37,649 nucleotides of DNA, taken from positions 1 to 37,649 of the forward strand of contig WFNB01000122.1 in assembly GCA_015488755.1 (NCBI GenBank). Direction: 5' to 3'. This document shows positions 2,092 to 8,547 of the stretch, one piece after another. A program made the translations under genes and the position numbers. Positions within the stretch are counted from its first letter, which is position 1; the number at the start of each line of letters is the position of its first letter. The notes beneath the pieces were generated by a model that made no database searches, was not told where the DNA came from, and saw only the letters and a list, made by a program, of their open reading frames with translations. Source of the DNA: Gammaproteobacteria bacterium (GTDB lineage Bacteria; Pseudomonadota; Gammaproteobacteria; GRL18).

Positions 2092-3750
2092 TTATTTCTG
2101 TAATTTTTCAAAGCTTAAATTATAGCGCTCTAATATTTGTTTTACTCGATGAGAATCGTTTTGACTTTTCTTTAAAAGGCGGGAATGCTTGAATAGTTTC
2201 CGCCCAGCATCAGCCATAGATGATGCTTCTTGGCATACTTCAATAACACCATTGAGAATGATTTTTTCATACTTATCCAATTGGCTTGTTACTTCTTGTC
2301 CTAATAAGTCATCTAAATTTATATCATGATCAGAGTGTTTTTTTGATGTATTATTATCATACCAATTATGCAACAAGCGTTTTATTTCATCTTCGACAAC
2401 CTCTAAAGATATTCGACCATTATCAGAAAGTGTCCCCATACGAATAATGCTGGCATTTAGATCTCTAAAATTGGCACTCCACAATGCCTCAGCTGATGAG
2501 GCAAATTGTATATACTTTTCCTTTGCTTGTTTGTTAAAACGCAGTAGCGAGCCTGTTTTCTGGCTATAACTTTCTAGCTCAAAGTAGATATTAGGTTCAA
2601 GATCTTCGATACGTTCTTTAAGTGAAGGCAATTGATAGGTCCATAAATTAATACGTGCTAATAAATCTTCTCGAAATAATCCTTGCTTAACTAATTGGTG
2701 AAAATTTTTATTTGTACCGGCAATTAATTGAAAATTGCTAGAGCTTTCTTTGTCTGAGCCAAAGGGAAGAAAAGTTTTTTCTTCAATTGCTCGTAATAGC
2801 ATGGCTTGTTCATCCAGACCTAATTCACCAATTTCATCGAGAAATAATAAACCACCATCGGCACTTTTTAATAAGCCACAGCGATGGCTGGTGGCTCCTG
2901 TATAGGAACCTTTTATATGCCCAAACAAGGCAGACATGGCATTATCTCCTCGTAACGTGGCGCAATTAACCACAATAAAATCACCATAGAATTGCCCTCG
3001 CTGTTTTTTTAACTGATAAATGCGTTTAGCTAATTGGCTTTTTCCTGCACCCGTTGGCCCTGTTAATAAAATAGCTTCTTGTGACCGAATAGAAACTTTT
3101 TCTAATTGCTCAATCATGCTGTTAAATTGTTTGTTTAGTGTCTTAATACCACTTTTTAAATAAGTGGTGCCCTCTGTATGTTCATGATGAAAACGAGAGG
3201 CAATTTGATCATATTTAGATAGATCTAGATCGATAATTTGATAGCTTCCCAAACCATTTTTAGATGAGTCTTTACTGGTTTGTCTCTTACTTTGTGTGTG
3301 TGTGAGAAGAGGAGATGTTTGGATTAATTTCCCGGGTAAATAATGGGTTTCAGTGAGTAAATATAAGCAGATCTGCGCTACATGAGTTCCAGTGGTAATA
3401 TGAATTAAATAATCCTCTTGATCACGTTTAAAGTGATACTGCTGACTAAAATCAAATAGAGCATTATACACATCCTCAAAATCCCACGGATCTTGAAAAT
3501 TCAGATGATGGTGTTGGATCTCTGTTTCAGGTGATATACGGATAATGTCTTCGCTGATTTGATTGGCTAGGGCTTGGAACTCAGGTTGAAATAAAAGCTC
3601 CATGCGATCAATTAGCAAATCATCCTGTTGGCACATTGAAATGGTAGGACGCCATTTAGACCAACGTCTTTCCCCTCGACCACGCTGATCCAATACGGTG
3701 CCTAAAATGCTAAAGGCGACAGTTTTTATTTGTCTATTTTTATTCTTCAT
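2092..3750 (-). CDS. rtcR: RtcR, sigma-54-dependent activator of the RNA-repair operon
   Basis: This 552-residue protein matches E. coli RtcR throughout. The first 185 or so residues form the divergent CARF sensor domain, including RRWSKWRPT (29-37) and HITTGTHVAQIC (117-128). The AAA+ domain has Walker A GPTGAGKS (231-238), Walker B LLFLDE (301-306) and the sigma-54 contact loop, which reads GSYTGA (281-286) instead of the usual GAFTGA. A C-terminal helical DNA-binding region follows. In Salmonella the CARF domain binds 5' tRNA fragments ending in 2',3'-cyclic phosphate and RtcR then oligomerises and activates rtcBA. The gene is divergent from rtcB, and the 207-bp gap holds inverted repeats and a sigma-54 promoter. 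Confidence 0.96.
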   Translation of the reverse strand: MKNKNRQIKTVAFSILGTVLDQRGRGERRWSKWRPTISMCQQDDLLIDRMELLFQPEFQALANQISEDIIRISPETEIQHHHLNFQDPWDFEDVYNALFDFSQQYHFKRDQEDYLIHITTGTHVAQICLYLLTETHYLPGKLIQTSPLLTHTQSKRQTSKDSSKNGLGSYQIIDLDLSKYDQIASRFHHEHTEGTTYLKSGIKTLNKQFNSMIEQLEKVSIRSQEAILLTGPTGAGKSQLAKRIYQLKKQRGQFYGDFIVVNCATLRGDNAMSALFGHIKGSYTGATSHRCGLLKSADGGLLFLDEIGELGLDEQAMLLRAIEEKTFLPFGSDKESSSNFQLIAGTNKNFHQLVKQGLFREDLLARINLWTYQLPSLKERIEDLEPNIYFELESYSQKTGSLLRFNKQAKEKYIQFASSAEALWSANFRDLNASIIRMGTLSDNGRISLEVVEDEIKRLLHNWYDNNTSKKHSDHDINLDDLLGQEVTSQLDKYEKIILNGVIEVCQEASSMADAGRKLFKHSRLLKKSQNDSHRVKQILERYNLSFEKLQK

Positions 3751-3894: not shown

Positions 3895-3910
3895 TGGCAC
3901 AAGTCTCGCT
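3895..3910 (+). promoter_or_regulatory. sigma-54 promoter of the rtcBA operon
   Basis: TGGCACAAGTCTCGCT fits the -24/-12 pattern TGGCAC-N5-TTGCW with correct spacing between the invariant GG (3896-3897) and GC (3908-3909). Transcription would start near 3921, leaving a leader of about 37 nt before the rtcB ATG. The RtcR gene next to it supports the assignment. Confidence 0.8.
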
Positions 3911-3957: not shown

Positions 3958-5205
3958 ATGAGTGAAAACAGACAACCTATAAATCCTCACTATGAAGTAA
4001 TGGAATCCACTAATGTGCCTATTAAATCATGGACTTGTGGGGTACCGTTTGAAGATCAGGCCAAAGAGCAATTAAAAAATGTTGCTAGTCTGCCTTTTAT
4101 TCATAAATGGGTGGCGGCCATGCCCGATGTACATCTTGGTAAAGGAGCAACTATTGGTAGTGTGGTACCTACTATAGGGGCTGTTATCCCAGCTGCTGTT
4201 GGTGTGGATATTGGCTGTGGCATGATGGCTGTGCGTACTAGCTTAACAGCAAGCCAGTTGCCTGATAATCTTTTAGCTATGCGCTCAGCTATTGAAGTAG
4301 CTGTCCCTCATGGACGCTCTAAACGTTTTCGTAGAGGGACACGAGATAAAGGCTCATGGCAAAATTTACCGGAAGATGTAATGCAAGCATGGCAGAGTAT
4401 TGCTAGTGAGTTTGATGTCTTAAAAGAAAAGCATCGAGTGTTAAAGAACACCAATAATGTGAACCATTTAGGTACTTTAGGGACAGGTAATCACTTTATT
4501 GAGATTTGTTTGGATGAGCAGGATAGTGTGTGGTTTATGCTTCATAGTGGCTCTCGAGGTGTAGGTAATAAAATAGGTACTCATTTTATAGAATTAGCAA
4601 AAAAGGATATGGAACGCTGGATGATTCATTTGCCAGATAAAGATTTGGCTTATCTACCAGAAGGAACGGATCATTTTAATGAGTATGTTGAAGCCGTTGA
4701 ATGGGCACAATCGTTTGCCAGAATTAATCGGGAAGTGATGATGAATCGGGTGATTCAAGCGGTGAAGTCTAGTCTCAAACTTGACTTTTCAACACAGTTA
4801 GAAGCAGTGAATTGTCACCATAATTATATTTCCAGAGAACACCATTATGGCAAGAATGTCATTGTTACTCGAAAGGGGGCTGTACGAGCAAGAGAAGGTG
4901 AAATGGGGATTATACCGGGTAGTATGGGGGCTCGTTCATTTATTGTTCGAGGCTTAGGTAATGCAGAAAGCTTCTGTAGTTGCAGTCATGGAGCAGGACG
5001 GGTGATGTCTCGGACTAAGGCAAAAAAAATAGTTTCTATAGATGAACATTTAAAAGCGACTCAAGGTGTTGAGTGTCGTAGGGATAAAGATGTGTTAGAT
5101 GAGACCCCCGCAGCCTATAAACCAATAGAAAAAGTAATGGCGGCACAGAGTGATTTGGTTGAAATCGTGTATACCTTAAAGCAAGTCGTTTGTGTAAAAG
5201 GATAA
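3958..5205 (+). CDS. rtcB: RtcB, GTP-dependent 3'-phosphate RNA ligase
   Basis: RtcB joins RNA 3'-phosphate or 2',3'-cyclic-phosphate ends to 5'-OH ends, the ends left by most anticodon nucleases. The protein is 415 residues, close to E. coli RtcB. Visible signatures are DVHLGKGATIGSVVP (57-71), the metal-site segment GVDIGCGMMAV (82-92), GTGNHFIEI (175-183), LHSGSRGVGNK (195-205) and the nucleotidylation segment CSCSHGAGRVMSR with catalytic His344. The start ATG is preceded by AGGAAA. It is the first gene after the sigma-54 promoter, with rtcA 42 bp downstream. No archease or PrfH gene is nearby. Confidence 0.97.
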   Translation: MSENRQPINPHYEVMESTNVPIKSWTCGVPFEDQAKEQLKNVASLPFIHKWVAAMPDVHLGKGATIGSVVPTIGAVIPAAVGVDIGCGMMAVRTSLTASQLPDNLLAMRSAIEVAVPHGRSKRFRRGTRDKGSWQNLPEDVMQAWQSIASEFDVLKEKHRVLKNTNNVNHLGTLGTGNHFIEICLDEQDSVWFMLHSGSRGVGNKIGTHFIELAKKDMERWMIHLPDKDLAYLPEGTDHFNEYVEAVEWAQSFARINREVMMNRVIQAVKSSLKLDFSTQLEAVNCHHNYISREHHYGKNVIVTRKGAVRAREGEMGIIPGSMGARSFIVRGLGNAESFCSCSHGAGRVMSRTKAKKIVSIDEHLKATQGVECRRDKDVLDETPAAYKPIEKVMAAQSDLVEIVYTLKQVVCVKG

Positions 5206-5247: not shown

Positions 5248-6282
5248 ATGAAAATAATTGATGGTTCACAAGGTGAAGGTGGTGGTCAAATTTTGCGAAC
5301 TGCATTATCTTTGTCGATGTGTTTAAAACAACCCATTAAATTGCATAGCATTCGTGCAGGGCGTAAAAAATCGGGTTTGTTACGCCAGCATTTAACCTGT
5401 GTTCGGGCAGCGAAAGAAGTTTGTCAAGCTAAGGTAATAGGTGATTATCTAGGCTCTGATAGTATTGAATTTTACCCCGGTAATATTCAATCTGGAGACT
5501 ATCATTTTGCCATTGCTACAGCAGGCAGTACAACACTGGTGTTTCAAACTATTTTACCGGCTTTATCTATGGCAGATGATATGTCTAGCGTGGTATTTGA
5601 AGGTGGTACTCATAATAGTCATGCACCGAGTTTTGATTTTATTGATCAAGCCTTTCTACCTATTATTGAATTATTGGGAATTCGAGTGGAAAGAACACTG
5701 ATAAAGTATGGCTTTTATCCTAATGGCGGGGGGCAGTGGCAAGCAAAAATATACCCTATCAATACAAATAAGGGAGAGCAGAAAAGAAAAACCGTTTCTT
5801 TGTCTCAACGTGGTGCCATTTTAGCCAGAAAAGCCCAGGTTATTTCAAGTCAAATTCCTGCGCATATTGGTGTTCGTGAATTAAAGAAAATAAAGAAACA
5901 ATGCCATTGGCAAGAAGATGAATTACAGCATTGTTTTGTTGATTCTTATGGGCCAGGGAATATTGTTTCTTTGCGATTGAAAGCAAAGCATGTTAATGAA
6001 GTGTTTGAAGCTGTAGGTAGTTTAGGTATACCTGCTGAACAGGTTGCAACACAGGCAATTAAAGCAATGAAAGACTATTTGCAAACAGATGTTGTTATAG
6101 GGATACACTTGGCTGATCAGTTACTATTGCCGTTAGTGTTGGCATCTGGAGGTTGTTATACAACCTTAAAACCCAGTTCACACACCGTAACAAACATACA
6201 GATCATTGAGTTGTTTATGAAAAATACAATTGTGATTGAACAACTCAATGAGCGTAATTATAACATTATCGTAGCACCATGA
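5248..6282 (+). CDS. rtcA: RtcA, RNA 3'-terminal phosphate cyclase
   Basis: RtcA converts RNA 3'- or 2'-phosphates to 2',3'-cyclic phosphates through an adenylylated histidine, and in Salmonella it is needed to make the RtcR-activating ligand. The 344-residue protein has the family's opening IDGSQGEGGGQILRTAL (4-20), GTHNSHAPSFDF (120-131), the loop GFYPNGGGQW (155-164) and the C-terminal SSHTVTNIQ with His312 in the position of the catalytic histidine. AAAGGA lies upstream of the ATG. Translation stops at 6282, and nearly 590 bp of structured non-coding DNA follow before the next gene. Confidence 0.97.
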   Translation: MKIIDGSQGEGGGQILRTALSLSMCLKQPIKLHSIRAGRKKSGLLRQHLTCVRAAKEVCQAKVIGDYLGSDSIEFYPGNIQSGDYHFAIATAGSTTLVFQTILPALSMADDMSSVVFEGGTHNSHAPSFDFIDQAFLPIIELLGIRVERTLIKYGFYPNGGGQWQAKIYPINTNKGEQKRKTVSLSQRGAILARKAQVISSQIPAHIGVRELKKIKKQCHWQEDELQHCFVDSYGPGNIVSLRLKAKHVNEVFEAVGSLGIPAEQVATQAIKAMKDYLQTDVVIGIHLADQLLLPLVLASGGCYTTLKPSSHTVTNIQIIELFMKNTIVIEQLNERNYNIIVAP

Positions 6283-6337
6283 ATGGTGTAATACGATAAG
6301 TAAACCTCTTTGAGATGACTGACAATAAAACAATGGC

Positions 6338-6355
6338 TCTGGTTCATAACCCAGA
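6338..6355 (+). other. hairpin resembling the anticodon arm of initiator tRNA
   Basis: TCTGGTTCATAACCCAGA folds as a 5-bp stem (TCTGG with CCAGA) around an 8-base loop containing CAT in the context TTCATAAC. It resembles the initiator tRNA arm GGGCTCATAACCC. No D or T arm is recognisable around it, so it is either an isolated fragment or a chance match. Confidence 0.35.
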
Positions 6356-6455
6356 CCTGTGCACTTAAACTAGGGTGTTTAATGACTTATTTATATAAGC
6401 ATTTCATGTCTATTGTACGGTGTATACAGTTTTATTTATGCAGTATTTCAAAGCC

Positions 6456-6529
6456 TGAAGATAGCTCATCGGGTAGAGCAACTGATATTTAATCAGTGTG
6501 TAGCAGGTTCGAATCCTGCTCTTCAACCA
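6456..6529 (+). ncRNA. tRNA-Lys(UUU)-like RNA with non-canonical features
   Basis: A full cloverleaf can be drawn. The acceptor pairs TGAAGA (6456-6461) with TCTTCA (6520-6525), followed by A and an encoded CCA (6527-6529). U8 and A9 are present. The D arm is GCTC/GAGC, the anticodon arm ACTGA/TCAGT with loop TATTTAA, the variable loop GTGTA, and the T arm GCAGG/CCTGC with loop TTCGAAT. The sequence is most like tRNA-Lys, with UUU at 6488-6490. Three oddities argue against a normal translating tRNA: the 1:72 acceptor pair is missing, position 33 is A instead of the near-universal U, and the usual R15-Y48 Levitt pair is replaced by U15-A48. Its place inside the rtc operon suggests a role in tRNA-damage sensing or repair. 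A decayed tRNA gene is the alternative. Confidence 0.75.
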
Positions 6530-6530
6530 A

Positions 6531-6586
6531 CCTCTTAGTTGGTCTATGGTAAGGCATCAGCCTGTGGTTCGACTCCACATATTAGA
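6531..6586 (+). ncRNA. minimal tRNA-like module with D and T arms but no anticodon arm
   Basis: Two bases after the CCA of the tRNA-Lys-like element there is a D-arm-like hairpin (GTCT 6542-6545, loop ATGGTA, AGGC 6552-6555). Seven bases later comes a perfect T arm (TGTGG 6563-6567, loop TTCGACT, CCACA 6575-6579). The anticodon arm is absent. The flanks TCTTAGT and TATTAGA pair only partly (four of seven), so an acceptor stem is weak and no CCA is encoded. GTAAGGC resembles tRNA-Gln D arms. Such a core resembles the tRNA-like module of bacterial Y RNAs, but decay of a tandem tRNA gene is equally consistent. Confidence 0.5.
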
Positions 6587-6682
6587 ATATTGAAAAATAT
6601 TCATTTGCTTTTGGTTCCTGTGATTATAATTTTTAATCACAACTGCTATTTAGCTTTGAATTAAAACAGCAAAGAAGTAGCA
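6585..6682 (+). other. series of hairpins after the tRNA-like modules
   Basis: Three local stems follow directly. GAATATT/AATATTC closes a GAAA tetraloop (6585-6602). TGTGATTA/TAATCACA has a 7-base loop (6619-6641). TGCTA/TAGCA (6644-6648, 6678-6682) encloses CTTTG/CAAAG (6654-6658, 6670-6674). None is followed by a T run, so they are not ordinary terminators. They may be part of a longer structured RNA. Confidence 0.5.
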
Positions 6683-6868: not shown

Positions 6869-8008
6869 ATGTTTGGAATAAGAAGGATTGTTATTGCACA
6901 ACATGAACGTGCAATCGTACTAAAAGATAAGCGTATTAATTCTATTTTAACTCCAGGTGTTTATTGGTTTGTTGATATTTTTAAGCGTCTGAATATTACC
7001 GTTTACAATAGTAATCACTTGGAATTTAACCATGATATGCTGAACAATTTATTAACAGAACAAAGTGAACTATGTGAGCAATATTTTCACATAGTGGAAC
7101 TTTCGGATCATGAAGTTGCTTATATCAGTTTGGATGGTAAGCTCAGCGCTATATTAGCACCTGCAAGCCGACAATTTTATTGGCGGGATGCCCGAAAGTT
7201 TACTGTTGAGATACAAAATATTAAACAAGACTTTGTGATTAATGAAGATAAATTATCACTACTATCCCATGATCGAATATTTCATTTTGGTGTTCAATAT
7301 CAAAAAGCAATCTTATCAGTAGAAGTTGCACAACAAACGATTGCTCTGTTATTTGTTGATGGTAAATTACTTAAAACCTTGGCTGCCGGTGTCTATGCAT
7401 TTTGGCAGTACAATCGTAAACTTAGCATTAAAATGGTTGATTTACGTTTGCAGTCTATGGATATATCGGGGCAGGAAATATTAACTAAAGATAAGGTGAG
7501 CTTACGTATTAATTTGGCAGCTAACTATCAAATTATTGATCCTGTTAAGGCGCATAATGGTGTGGTTAATATTATTGAGTTTATTTATAGAGAGTGCCAA
7601 TTTGCTATTAGGGAAGCCATTGGTACGGAAGTATTAGATGATTTATTGGCGAATAAGGGAGAATTGGACGCCATGATATTTAAGGCTGTGGCTAATACAT
7701 TGATAGACTTTGGTGTAAAAATCTTTAGTGTGGGTGTAAAAGACATTATCTTACCAGGTGATATGAAGGATATTTTAAATCAGGTTGTTGAAGTTGAAAA
7801 AGCGGCACAAGCTAATGTGATTAAACGTCGAGAAGAAACGGCTGCAACTCGTTCACTATTAAATACAGCAAAATTAATGGCACAAAATCCATTACTAATG
7901 CGTTTAAAAGAGCTAGAAACCATGGAAAAAATTACCGAGAAAGTGGATAAATTAACAGTCTTTGGTGGTTTGGATGGTGTCTTAAAAGAAGTTGTTAAAA
8001 TTGCATAA
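6869..8008 (+). CDS. slipin/SPFH (band 7) protein of the RNA-repair operon
   Basis: This 379-residue protein has a C-terminal SPFH/band 7 domain (about 150-320) with typical segments such as VDLRLQSMDISGQEILTKD, VSLRINLAANYQI, REAIGTEVLDDLL and FGVKIFSVGVKDIILP, then a helical tail. The N-terminal part has three related blocks near residues 7-35, 76-106 and 151-180, each ending in a variant of DGKL--IL-PG-Y-FW. There is no signal peptide or clear transmembrane helix. SPFH proteins assemble into membrane-associated scaffolds, and slipins have been reported next to RtcB genes in comparative-genomic surveys. AAGGAG lies upstream of the ATG. Its role in RNA repair is unknown. Confidence 0.85.
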   Translation: MFGIRRIVIAQHERAIVLKDKRINSILTPGVYWFVDIFKRLNITVYNSNHLEFNHDMLNNLLTEQSELCEQYFHIVELSDHEVAYISLDGKLSAILAPASRQFYWRDARKFTVEIQNIKQDFVINEDKLSLLSHDRIFHFGVQYQKAILSVEVAQQTIALLFVDGKLLKTLAAGVYAFWQYNRKLSIKMVDLRLQSMDISGQEILTKDKVSLRINLAANYQIIDPVKAHNGVVNIIEFIYRECQFAIREAIGTEVLDDLLANKGELDAMIFKAVANTLIDFGVKIFSVGVKDIILPGDMKDILNQVVEVEKAAQANVIKRREETAATRSLLNTAKLMAQNPLLMRLKELETMEKITEKVDKLTVFGGLDGVLKEVVKIA

Positions 8009-8130
8009 GATGTTTTGTTGAGATGCTCTGTCAATATTTTTATCTACTGGATATTGGCAGTATTTCAAAAGTCGTTGTAAAATGATCTCAGTATGTATCC
8101 CCACGAGTAAAAGACTAATAGGAAATGACT

Positions 8131-8547
8131 ATGCTGAATCAAGTAATGATCGGTGATGTAATGACTGCATCGCCCTATAGTATTGATATTAAAGATAAAT
8201 TGGTTGCTGCACAGCAACTAATGAGCGATAAGGCTATTCGTCATCTCCCAGTATTAGAAGGTAAAAATGCGGTCAGTGTGTTAACGGATAGAGATATTAA
8301 TTTGGCCTTGGCAGCCAATAAGAATGTACAGGCAGCAGAAGAGCTGATGGTTGAAGATGTGTGTGCTTTAAATCTCTATCAGGTAGACAAGACGGTTAAA
8401 TTATCCGATGTGGTCTCTTATATGGCAGACAAAGCGATTGGTTCAGTCTTGATCACCAATCAAGGAGAACTTGATGGTATTTTTACGGCAACAGATGCCT
8501 GTAAATACTTAGCTATGTGCCTAAATGGTGAGTTTTCTAAAGAATAA
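8131..8547 (+). CDS. twin CBS-domain protein
   Basis: This protein of 138 residues consists almost entirely of two CBS domains, about 5-58 (with VGDVMTASP-like opening IGDVMTASPYS and LPVLEGKNAVSVLTDRDI) and 73-128 (VEDVCALNLYQVDKTVKLSDV, GSVLITNQGELDGIFTATD). CBS pairs usually bind adenine nucleotides and regulate partner proteins. The start is placed at the ATG at 8131 because AGGA lies seven bases ahead of it; the ATG at 8125 is too close to that site. It lies 122 bp after the slipin gene on the same strand and is probably the last gene of the RNA-repair operon, though that is inferred from position only. Confidence 0.85.
   Translation: MLNQVMIGDVMTASPYSIDIKDKLVAAQQLMSDKAIRHLPVLEGKNAVSVLTDRDINLALAANKNVQAAEELMVEDVCALNLYQVDKTVKLSDVVSYMADKAIGSVLITNQGELDGIFTATDACKYLAMCLNGEFSKE

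What the first reader, a model, noticed from the sequence alone, without database searches (positions are those of the whole stretch)
6869..8547. Slipin with three N-terminal repeats plus CBS protein in the RNA-repair operon
The slipin carries three blocks resembling ---AxxxxDGKLxxILxPGxYxFW ahead of the SPFH domain, and is followed by a stand-alone CBS pair. Together with tRNA-like RNAs this suggests a scaffolded, perhaps adenine-nucleotide-controlled, repair assembly. Slipins near RtcB have been noted in surveys; the CBS partner and the RNA array make this variant worth attention.
Basis: partly seen in the sequence, partly recalled or inferred. Interest (0 to 1): 0.58.

Follow-up and report, generated by a model that had tools for sequence, protein, structure and literature searches.

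The report
Slipin and tRNA-like RNA repair module
Next to the genes that mend broken tRNA, this bacterium carries a probably ring-forming protein built from repeated units together with its own tRNA-like RNA; similar pairs occur in many bacteria including about 30% of complete E. coli genomes, often beside a bank of spare tRNA genes, whereas the CBS protein noticed here is only a local neighbour.

Summary
The slipin (6869-8008) has three related ~48-residue units: two extra ones, then the SPFH domain's own first subdomain. Three occur in 55 of 55 relatives of that length, five in three longer ones, none or one in 25 ordinary SPFH proteins; no membrane helix is predicted. The link to rtc genes is real: all 15 slipin genomes among 274 of the class have RtcB (9 within 1.7 kb), and 6 of 8 RtcR genomes have the slipin. 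The CBS gene occurs in none of 62 slipin loci. The conserved partner is an RNA between rtcA and slipin (6329-6590): a two-hairpin motif with compensatory changes, a tRNA cloverleaf and a lone T-arm; the motif is found in 57 of 62 loci and is not in Rfam. In 20 of 50 loci five or more tRNA genes lie upstream. E. coli (1617 of 5426 genomes) has an RNA-slipin-RlaP operon behind a sigma54-like site. Best reading: a soluble slipin-RNA scaffold of tRNA repair, perhaps vault-like. SPFH proteins with a tRNA-like RNA in repair operons were announced in 2016 (recalled, paper not held), so this is a new variant of a known kind.

The parts
2092..3750 (-). rtcR, sigma54 activator with N-terminal RtcR (CARF-type) domain
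   Evidence: Pfam RtcR 5.1e-80; NCBIfam NF038308 747.5 bits, cut-off 650
3895..3909 (+). candidate sigma54 promoter TGGCAC-N5-TCGC before rtcB
   Evidence: 1 mismatch to TGGCACNNNNNTTGC; 0 of 300 shuffles of the intergenic stretch as good
3958..5205 (+). rtcB, RNA ligase
   Evidence: Pfam RtcB 3.4e-133
5248..6282 (+). rtcA, RNA 3'-terminal phosphate cyclase
   Evidence: Pfam RTC 1e-71; NCBIfam NF003246 385 bits, over cut-off
6329..6435 (+). RNA motif A: two hairpins
   Evidence: covarying structure on A5, 95.7% of cells paired; model R1 hit 49.9 bits (a training row); R1 hits in 11 of 274 genomes, 10 upstream of this slipin
6455..6528 (+). RNA module B: tRNA-like cloverleaf, anticodon TTT, first acceptor pair C.A
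   Evidence: ARAGORN, Rfam 53.6 bits, pairing table, fold with 6-pair acceptor
6541..6590 (+). RNA module C: AGGC hairpin plus lone T-arm, no D-arm
   Evidence: in betaproteobacteria the module has a covarying acceptor stem
6869..8008 (+). slipin: three SPFH1-type units, SPFH2, long helix, no membrane helix
6875..7018 (+). unit 1 (residues 3-50)
   Evidence: five strands in the model; unit HMM 5.8e-22
7082..7231 (+). unit 2 (residues 72-121)
   Evidence: five strands in the model; unit HMM 1.6e-21
7307..7450 (+). unit 3 (residues 147-194), the domain's own SPFH1 part
   Evidence: five strands in the model; unit HMM 3.7e-23; Band_7 match starts at 152
8125..8547 (+). stand-alone CBS pair; local neighbour, not part of the conserved unit
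   Evidence: Pfam CBS 2.3e-15, two stretches; found in 0 of 62 slipin loci

Best explanation
A damage-induced tRNA-repair operon in which the slipin and the RNA just before it form a soluble ribonucleoprotein scaffold. Cleaved tRNA ending in 2',3'-cyclic phosphate activates RtcR (published for Salmonella), which fires the sigma54 promoter at 3895; the transcript gives RtcB, RtcA, the A-B-C RNA and the slipin. The slipin, lacking a membrane anchor, would oligomerise through its SPFH2 domain and long helix, with its SPFH1 units stacked as extra wall layers. The RNA would bind this assembly, perhaps through motif A, and show tRNA-like surfaces (cloverleaf B, T-arm module C) that dock tRNA-repair enzymes or broken tRNA halves. 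In lineages with arrays the same locus also supplies replacement tRNAs. The CBS protein is a passenger of this lineage. Shown: gene order, co-occurrence, covarying RNA, repeat anatomy, lack of a hydrophobic segment, promoter-like site. Inferred: co-transcription, RNA binding, ring or cage, docking.
For: RNA and slipin travel together: motif A found by R1 or R2 in 57 of 62 loci plus the window, always upstream on the slipin's strand; of 11 R1 hits in 274 genomes, 10 lie 0.4-1.5 kb upstream of the slipin and the eleventh sits beside rtcB at a contig end. RNA structure: 95.7% of cells paired, 10 of 17 pairs with changes on both sides, slid controls 23-45%; beta version 95.3%, 6 of 17; module C acceptor in betaproteobacteria 5.74 of 6 pairs on average, 0 of 5000 permutations as good. 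Repair context: RtcB and RtcR co-occurrence; RlaP (RNA repair nucleotidyltransferase, 1.4e-96) beside the slipin in E. coli; slipin divergent from rtcR in Citrobacter; promoter-like sites. Protein: no 19-residue window at or above 1.6 in 55 of 55. Published co-regulation in Anabaena of rtcB, a slipin, an HNH gene and a 26-tRNA array by TrcR (PMC10272220, passages read).
Against: No binding, oligomer or expression data. The model has pTM 0.58 and was predicted as a monomer. E. coli and Citrobacter RNAs lack cloverleaf B and are not matched convincingly by R1 (E 0.48 and 1.2, at places inside the slipin gene) or R2 (no hit). Of 60 loci with 300 or more bases upstream, 3 lack a motif A hit (L056, L081, L091). 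Five of 15 slipin genomes in the class survey had no R1 hit. Six of 15 slipins are on another contig than any rtcB. The window's A region alone folds no better than shuffles (z -0.21), so its structure rests on comparison.
Confidence: 0.5

Rival explanations
1. The RNA is a cis-acting leader: it controls translation or processing of the slipin mRNA, and the slipin does not bind it in trans.
For: Always upstream of and on the strand of the slipin; in E. coli it lies between a sigma54-like site and the slipin start.
Against: Motif A can be about 1.5 kb away (G116); the order of modules B and C is swapped between gamma- and betaproteobacteria and B is missing in E. coli, which a leader switch would hardly tolerate. 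Terminators and start-codon pairing were not looked for systematically.
Confidence: 0.22
2. Anti-nuclease bait and tRNA bank: cloverleaf B and the arrays provide decoy and replacement tRNAs when anticodon nucleases strike; the slipin only organises or protects them.
For: Arrays of up to 23 tRNA genes; 299 same-strand tRNA genes upstream, none on the other strand, 15 downstream in about equal length; 229 of 249 with CCA; all 20 amino acids; the anticodon of B changes among close relatives.
Against: The window and the four other loci with rtcR nearby have at most one tRNA call; B has a mismatched or short acceptor in many loci.
Confidence: 0.2
3. An ordinary slipin that forms membrane microdomains or modulates a protease, placed in the repair regulon for reasons unrelated to RNA.
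For: The best structural matches are stomatins; a ClpP-like SDH-type protease gene is near the slipin in 5 loci (one member checked).
Against: No hydrophobic segment in 55 of 55; extra units; the RNA link.
Confidence: 0.15
4. One reading: the CBS protein is an adenine-nucleotide sensor subunit of the slipin-RtcB assembly.
For: Adjacent, same strand, 117-base gap.
Against: No CBS protein in 62 of 62 other slipin loci.
Confidence: 0.04

Closest known systems
SPFH/Band-7 scaffold with a tRNA-like RNA in RtcB repair systems (Burroughs and Aravind 2016, NAR gkw722; abstract recalled, the paper is not held)
   Same: SPFH protein, tRNA-like RNA, RNA ligase, nucleotidyltransferase (RlaP beside the slipin in E. 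coli)
   Different: The tandem SPFH1 units, five-unit forms, the A motif, swapped or missing cloverleaf, tRNA arrays and the lack of a CBS link were worked out here; whether that paper saw any of them could not be checked
rsr-yrlBA-rtcBA operon of Salmonella (PMC7790460, abstract start and passages read)
   Same: RtcR-controlled rtcBA with an operon-encoded RNA that has a tRNA-like domain
   Different: Rsr and YrlA there; here a slipin and an RNA with motif A, cloverleaf and T-arm module
P. aeruginosa PaFlo8 (PA14_60630), an SPFH gene embedded in the rtc locus (PMC13086221, passages read)
   Same: SPFH gene with rtcA, rtcB, rtcR
   Different: No RNA or repeat is mentioned for it in the passages seen; its sequence was not compared here
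Anabaena TrcR regulon (PMC10272220, passages read)
   Same: rtcB, a slipin, an HNH gene and a 26-tRNA array switched together
   Different: Genes unlinked and under an RHH repressor; slipin subfamily not checked
Mycobacterial tRNA array units (PMC5966550, passages read)
   Different: RtcB and slipin occur 0 times in its text
Major vault protein
   Same: Repeated beta units, SPFH-like shoulder, long helix, and RNA in the particle (the last recalled); full-length alignment Z 12.0, 227 residues, model 4-339
   Different: No vault family among the Pfam hits; units taken alone match SPFH1 of erlin, prohibitin and HflK better

Membership tests
RtcR-RtcBA RNA repair operon | rtcR divergent from rtcB and rtcA | tested here: met
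RtcR-RtcBA RNA repair operon | sigma54 promoter before the first gene | tested here: met
   one-mismatch site at 3895, 0 of 300 shuffles as good; activity not shown
Slipin / SPFH proteins | SPFH (Band_7) domain | tested here: met
   Pfam 3.9e-25; archaeal stomatin 3bk6 5.6e-29 by family profile
Slipin / SPFH proteins | N-terminal hydrophobic membrane segment (recalled) | tested here: not met
   Kyte-Doolittle 19-residue maximum 1.41 in the window protein, under 1.6 in 55 of 55
Major vault protein | vault repeat and shoulder families by sequence | tested here: inconclusive
   no vault family among Pfam hits up to E 0.1
Major vault protein | fold of repeats plus shoulder plus helix | tested here: inconclusive
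   Foldseek E 1.7e-11 with 9r86, Z 12.0 with 9bw5 over model 4-339, but units alone only Z 4.4 or less
Major vault protein | closed many-copy cage (recalled) | not testable with these tools
   no multimer prediction available
Known RNA families, including Y RNA | match to a curated RNA model beyond tRNA | tested here: not met
   only tRNA in the slipin-upstream stretches of the window and 17 loci; none over the E. coli, Citrobacter and Burkholderia stretches
Decoding tRNA (module B) | seven-pair acceptor followed by a discriminator base and CCA | tested here: not met
   window B: pair 1 is C.A, six pairs remain; relatives vary, L061 and L075 pair fully

The most novel reading that the evidence does not exclude
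A bacterial vault-like particle for tRNA repair: a soluble slipin whose wall is lengthened by whole SPFH1 units (three, or five in Thiomargarita and Parabeggiatoa relatives) houses its own tRNA-like RNA and the tRNA ligase machinery, with a tRNA bank in the same locus. It would join vaults and stomatin cages as one RNA-bearing family.
Probability: 0.25. Interest if true: 0.87.

Novelty: new variant of a known kind. Interest (0 to 1): 0.6.

Why it matters
What SPFH proteins do in RNA repair operons, and what the tRNA-like RNA beside them is for, are open questions. The survey gives a dedicated RNA with a testable structure, shows that unit number varies, and puts a form of the pair in about 30% of complete E. 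coli genomes behind a likely RtcR promoter, so knock-out, pull-down and cryo-EM are feasible in a laboratory species. If the cage reading is right it links vaults, stomatin cages and tRNA repair. It also ties proteobacterial tRNA arrays to RtcB, which offers a testable role for such arrays.

Tried and rejected
CBS partner: rejected as a conserved part. Window A region by single-sequence folding: z -0.21, uninformative; the 540-base stretch as a whole z -2.26. R1 and R2 on the E. coli and Citrobacter loci: no convincing match, so these RNAs are called relatives by position, T-arm and promoter only. Foldseek with the three units alone: the top E-values are long, low-TM matches to a kinase (TM 0.13-0.17) and were discarded as chance; the tight matches are SPFH1 subdomains. 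Module C acceptor in the gammaproteobacterial loci and the window: only short or unclear acceptors, so no claim. L069 has rtcR beside the slipin but no good sigma54 site there (3 mismatches, 259 of 300 shuffles as good). Alignment A7 mixed two registers and was not used for counts. Alignment A1 was a mistake and is not used. Phage records: no match at 1e-10; four relatives in IMG/VR contigs, not followed.

Known biases. The 62 loci were found with peptide patterns that lie in units 1 and 3, which favours proteins that have both; the class survey used a profile. 49 of the 55 three-unit proteins trained the unit models; the three five-unit proteins did not. The bracket structures for A5 and A6 were drawn by eye from those alignments, so their counts lean towards them; 22 of the 34 R1 hits and 10 of the 25 R2 hits are training rows. 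Rows left out of the 55: L050, L059, L060, L073, L093, L094, L095, L096 (cut off, frame-broken or longer). A3 used 49 of the 55 and A4 41. Neighbour clusters were made from all ORFs of 80 or more residues; only one or two members of each named cluster were checked by Pfam.

Literature: ten searches used. RtcB with slipin returned the Anabaena TrcR paper and one CAST paper that was not read; RtcB with tRNA array, and any two of RlaP, slipin, RtcR, YcgL nucleotidyltransferase, returned the Anabaena paper alone. This speaks for the held library only. The 2016 survey is recalled, not read.

Full report
What is there. Around the finding the window reads rtcR (2092-3750, minus), then on the plus strand rtcB (3958-5205), rtcA (5248-6282), 587 bases with RNA features, the slipin (6869-8008) and a CBS-pair protein (8125-8547); soxB follows on the minus strand. 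A sigma54-type site with one mismatch lies at 3895-3909, and none of 300 shuffles of that intergenic stretch did as well. Exact sites stand before rtcB of an E. coli strain and of L091 and before rtcA of L092, and a one-mismatch site before rtcB of L075; L069 has none. So the operon is a normal RtcR unit with extra members.

The repeats. Family sub-alignments of the three blocks match each other with E 6.9e-11, 1.3e-11 and 8.6e-9. A predicted model (49 sequences, mean pLDDT 78.8, pTM 0.58) gives each block the same five strands, at 4-47, 73-117 and 148-191, before the rest of the SPFH domain (195-294) and a long helix (297-360). Unit models find exactly three in 55 of 55 slipins, and five in L059, L060 and L073, which were not in the training set; the unit order differs (1-2-1-2-3 in L059, 1-2-3-2-3 in L060), so the lengthening took place more than once or in more than one register. 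Of 25 control SPFH proteins from related genomes 9 have one unit and 16 none by the same test. The first 200 residues predicted alone (pLDDT 83.7) match the SPFH1 subdomain of Erlin2, prohibitin, HflK, QmcA, flotillin and stomatin, Z 5.1-6.4 over 42-48 residues at 1.5-2.4 A; Z of this size is low in absolute terms, but it covers the whole small unit. I read the repeats as duplicated SPFH1 subdomains. Membrane SPFH proteins align only to about residues 121-379 of the full model, whereas vault protein aligns from residue 4-7 to 337-339 in four entries (9bw5 Z 12.0, rmsd 5.5, 227 residues; Foldseek 9r86 E 1.7e-11). This makes the layout vault-like, but the units taken alone match vault repeats weakly (Z 4.4 or less) and no vault family was hit by sequence. 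No 19-residue window reaches 1.6 on the hydropathy scale in 55 of 55.

Linkage. From five slipins a scan of one genome per species gave 62 loci, mostly gamma- and betaproteobacteria by their titles. rtcB lies on 35 of 62, rtcR on 4 and rtcA on 4; many stretches are cut by contig ends. In 274 genomes of the window's class the slipin occurs in 15, RtcB in 91 and RtcR over its cut-off in 8. All 15 slipin genomes have RtcB, 9 of them within 1.7 kb; 6 of the 8 RtcR genomes have the slipin, 4 of them within 3.2 kb of rtcR (places; Fisher 2.9e-8 and 2.4e-7). Other recurrent neighbours are an HNH protein (27 of 62 loci), a cluster with a PcfJ-like member (9), an unnamed 320-residue protein (6) and a cluster with a ClpP-like protease (5).

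The RNA. Between the preceding gene and the slipin the loci share motif A, a cloverleaf B and a T-arm without D-arm, C. For motif A, 22 sequences give 95.7% standard pairs, 10 of 17 pairs with changes on both sides and 59 such cells; no shuffle of 500 reaches any measure and slid versions pair 23-45%. A betaproteobacterial form has the same plan (95.3%, 6 of 17). Models R1 and R2 hit 33 and 24 different loci of the 62; R1 also hits the window; every hit lies upstream on the slipin's strand. Of the five misses two (L058, L060) have under 300 bases upstream. In 274 genomes R1 hits 11; ten lie upstream of the slipin, one (G056) lies beside rtcB at a contig end where the slipin would be expected. 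In betaproteobacteria module C has an acceptor stem directly on the T-stem: 17 of 23 pair perfectly over six positions with 12 different 3' strands, and none of 5000 permutations does as well. C comes after B in gamma- and before B in betaproteobacteria. B keeps a normal anticodon loop in most gamma loci but its anticodon changes between near relatives (GTT or GAT in Thiodiazotropha, TTT in the window), and its acceptor is often short. The window's B has no close copy in its genome (best other match 78% over 58 bases). Rfam knows none of this beyond 'tRNA'.

tRNA arrays. Over 63 loci ARAGORN tRNA genes upstream on the slipin's strand, none upstream on the other strand, and 15 on both strands downstream in about the same number of bases; 20 of the 50 loci with 2.5 kb upstream have five or more, 11 have ten or more; of 249 tRNA genes further than 620 bases upstream 229 encode CCA, and all 20 amino acids occur. 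The five loci with rtcR on the stretch (window, L069, L075, L091, L092) have at most one call, so RtcR control and arrays look like alternatives; 29 of the other 45 loci with 2.5 kb upstream have three or more. In nine loci a protein with a sub-threshold HTH_3 match is encoded on the other strand upstream. Arrays with XRE and HNH genes are known from mycobacteria (PMC5966550); a silent array switched on with rtcB, a slipin and an HNH gene is known from Anabaena (PMC10272220). I found no paper in the held library that joins arrays to slipin-RtcB loci.

E. coli. A slipin of this family followed by a nucleotidyltransferase sits between yjbD and lysC; the partner is RlaP at 1.4e-96. At least 80% of the 2461-base stretch is present in 1617 of 5426 complete genomes. 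Before it lie a one-mismatch sigma54 site (5 of 300 shuffles as good) and an RNA with a hairpin and a T-arm but no cloverleaf; Citrobacter freundii has rtcR itself divergent from the slipin. One carrier strain also has the usual rtcR-rtcBA locus elsewhere. This suggests a second RtcR target operon in E. coli, which has not been tested.

Mechanism. RtcR of Salmonella binds tRNA 5' fragments with cyclic phosphate ends (PMC7790460, passages). I infer that the same signal here raises RtcB, RtcA, the RNA and the slipin together; that the slipin forms a soluble ring or cage; and that the RNA sits on it and offers tRNA-like docking surfaces. The RNA-slipin pairing is the strongest new evidence and the docking step the weakest. 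The CBS protein may be co-transcribed but is not part of the conserved system.

Known or new. SPFH proteins with a tRNA-like RNA in repair systems, and a novel nucleotidyltransferase that goes with ligases, were announced in Burroughs and Aravind 2016 as I recall its abstract; the paper is not held. So the kind is known. New here, as far as could be checked, are the SPFH1 duplications and five-unit forms, the covarying RNA motif and its module shuffling, the tie to tRNA arrays, the E. coli prevalence and promoter, and the rejection of the CBS link.

Noticed in passing
   Followed up: partly
L059, L060, L073: 520-524-residue slipins with five SPFH1-type units in Parabeggiatoa and Thiomargarita relatives.
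   Followed up: partly
L061, L044, L046, L095 (upstream of the slipin): Arrays of 20-23 tRNA genes covering most amino acids; L047 and L055 have further tRNA genes downstream of rtcB.
   Followed up: partly
L108 5479-6405: A zeta toxin family gene lies next to the slipin-RlaP operon in an E. coli chromosome; the yjbD-lysC gap looks like a variable site.
   Followed up: no
L054 9156-10205, L044 9210-10172: A ~320-residue protein near slipin and rtcB in six loci has no Pfam hit.
   Followed up: no
319-1999: Two adjacent PilJ-type sensor-domain proteins beyond rtcR, the second a weak match.
   Followed up: no
L110, L111: Slipin relatives in IMG/VR contigs of 94 and 44 kb; not checked whether they are truly viral.
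   Followed up: no
PMC7652931 (paper): In Acinetobacter baumannii rtcB and the hypothetical gene just downstream (AB57_3343) were both raised 252-fold by tigecycline (passage read); the identity of that gene was not checked.
   Followed up: no
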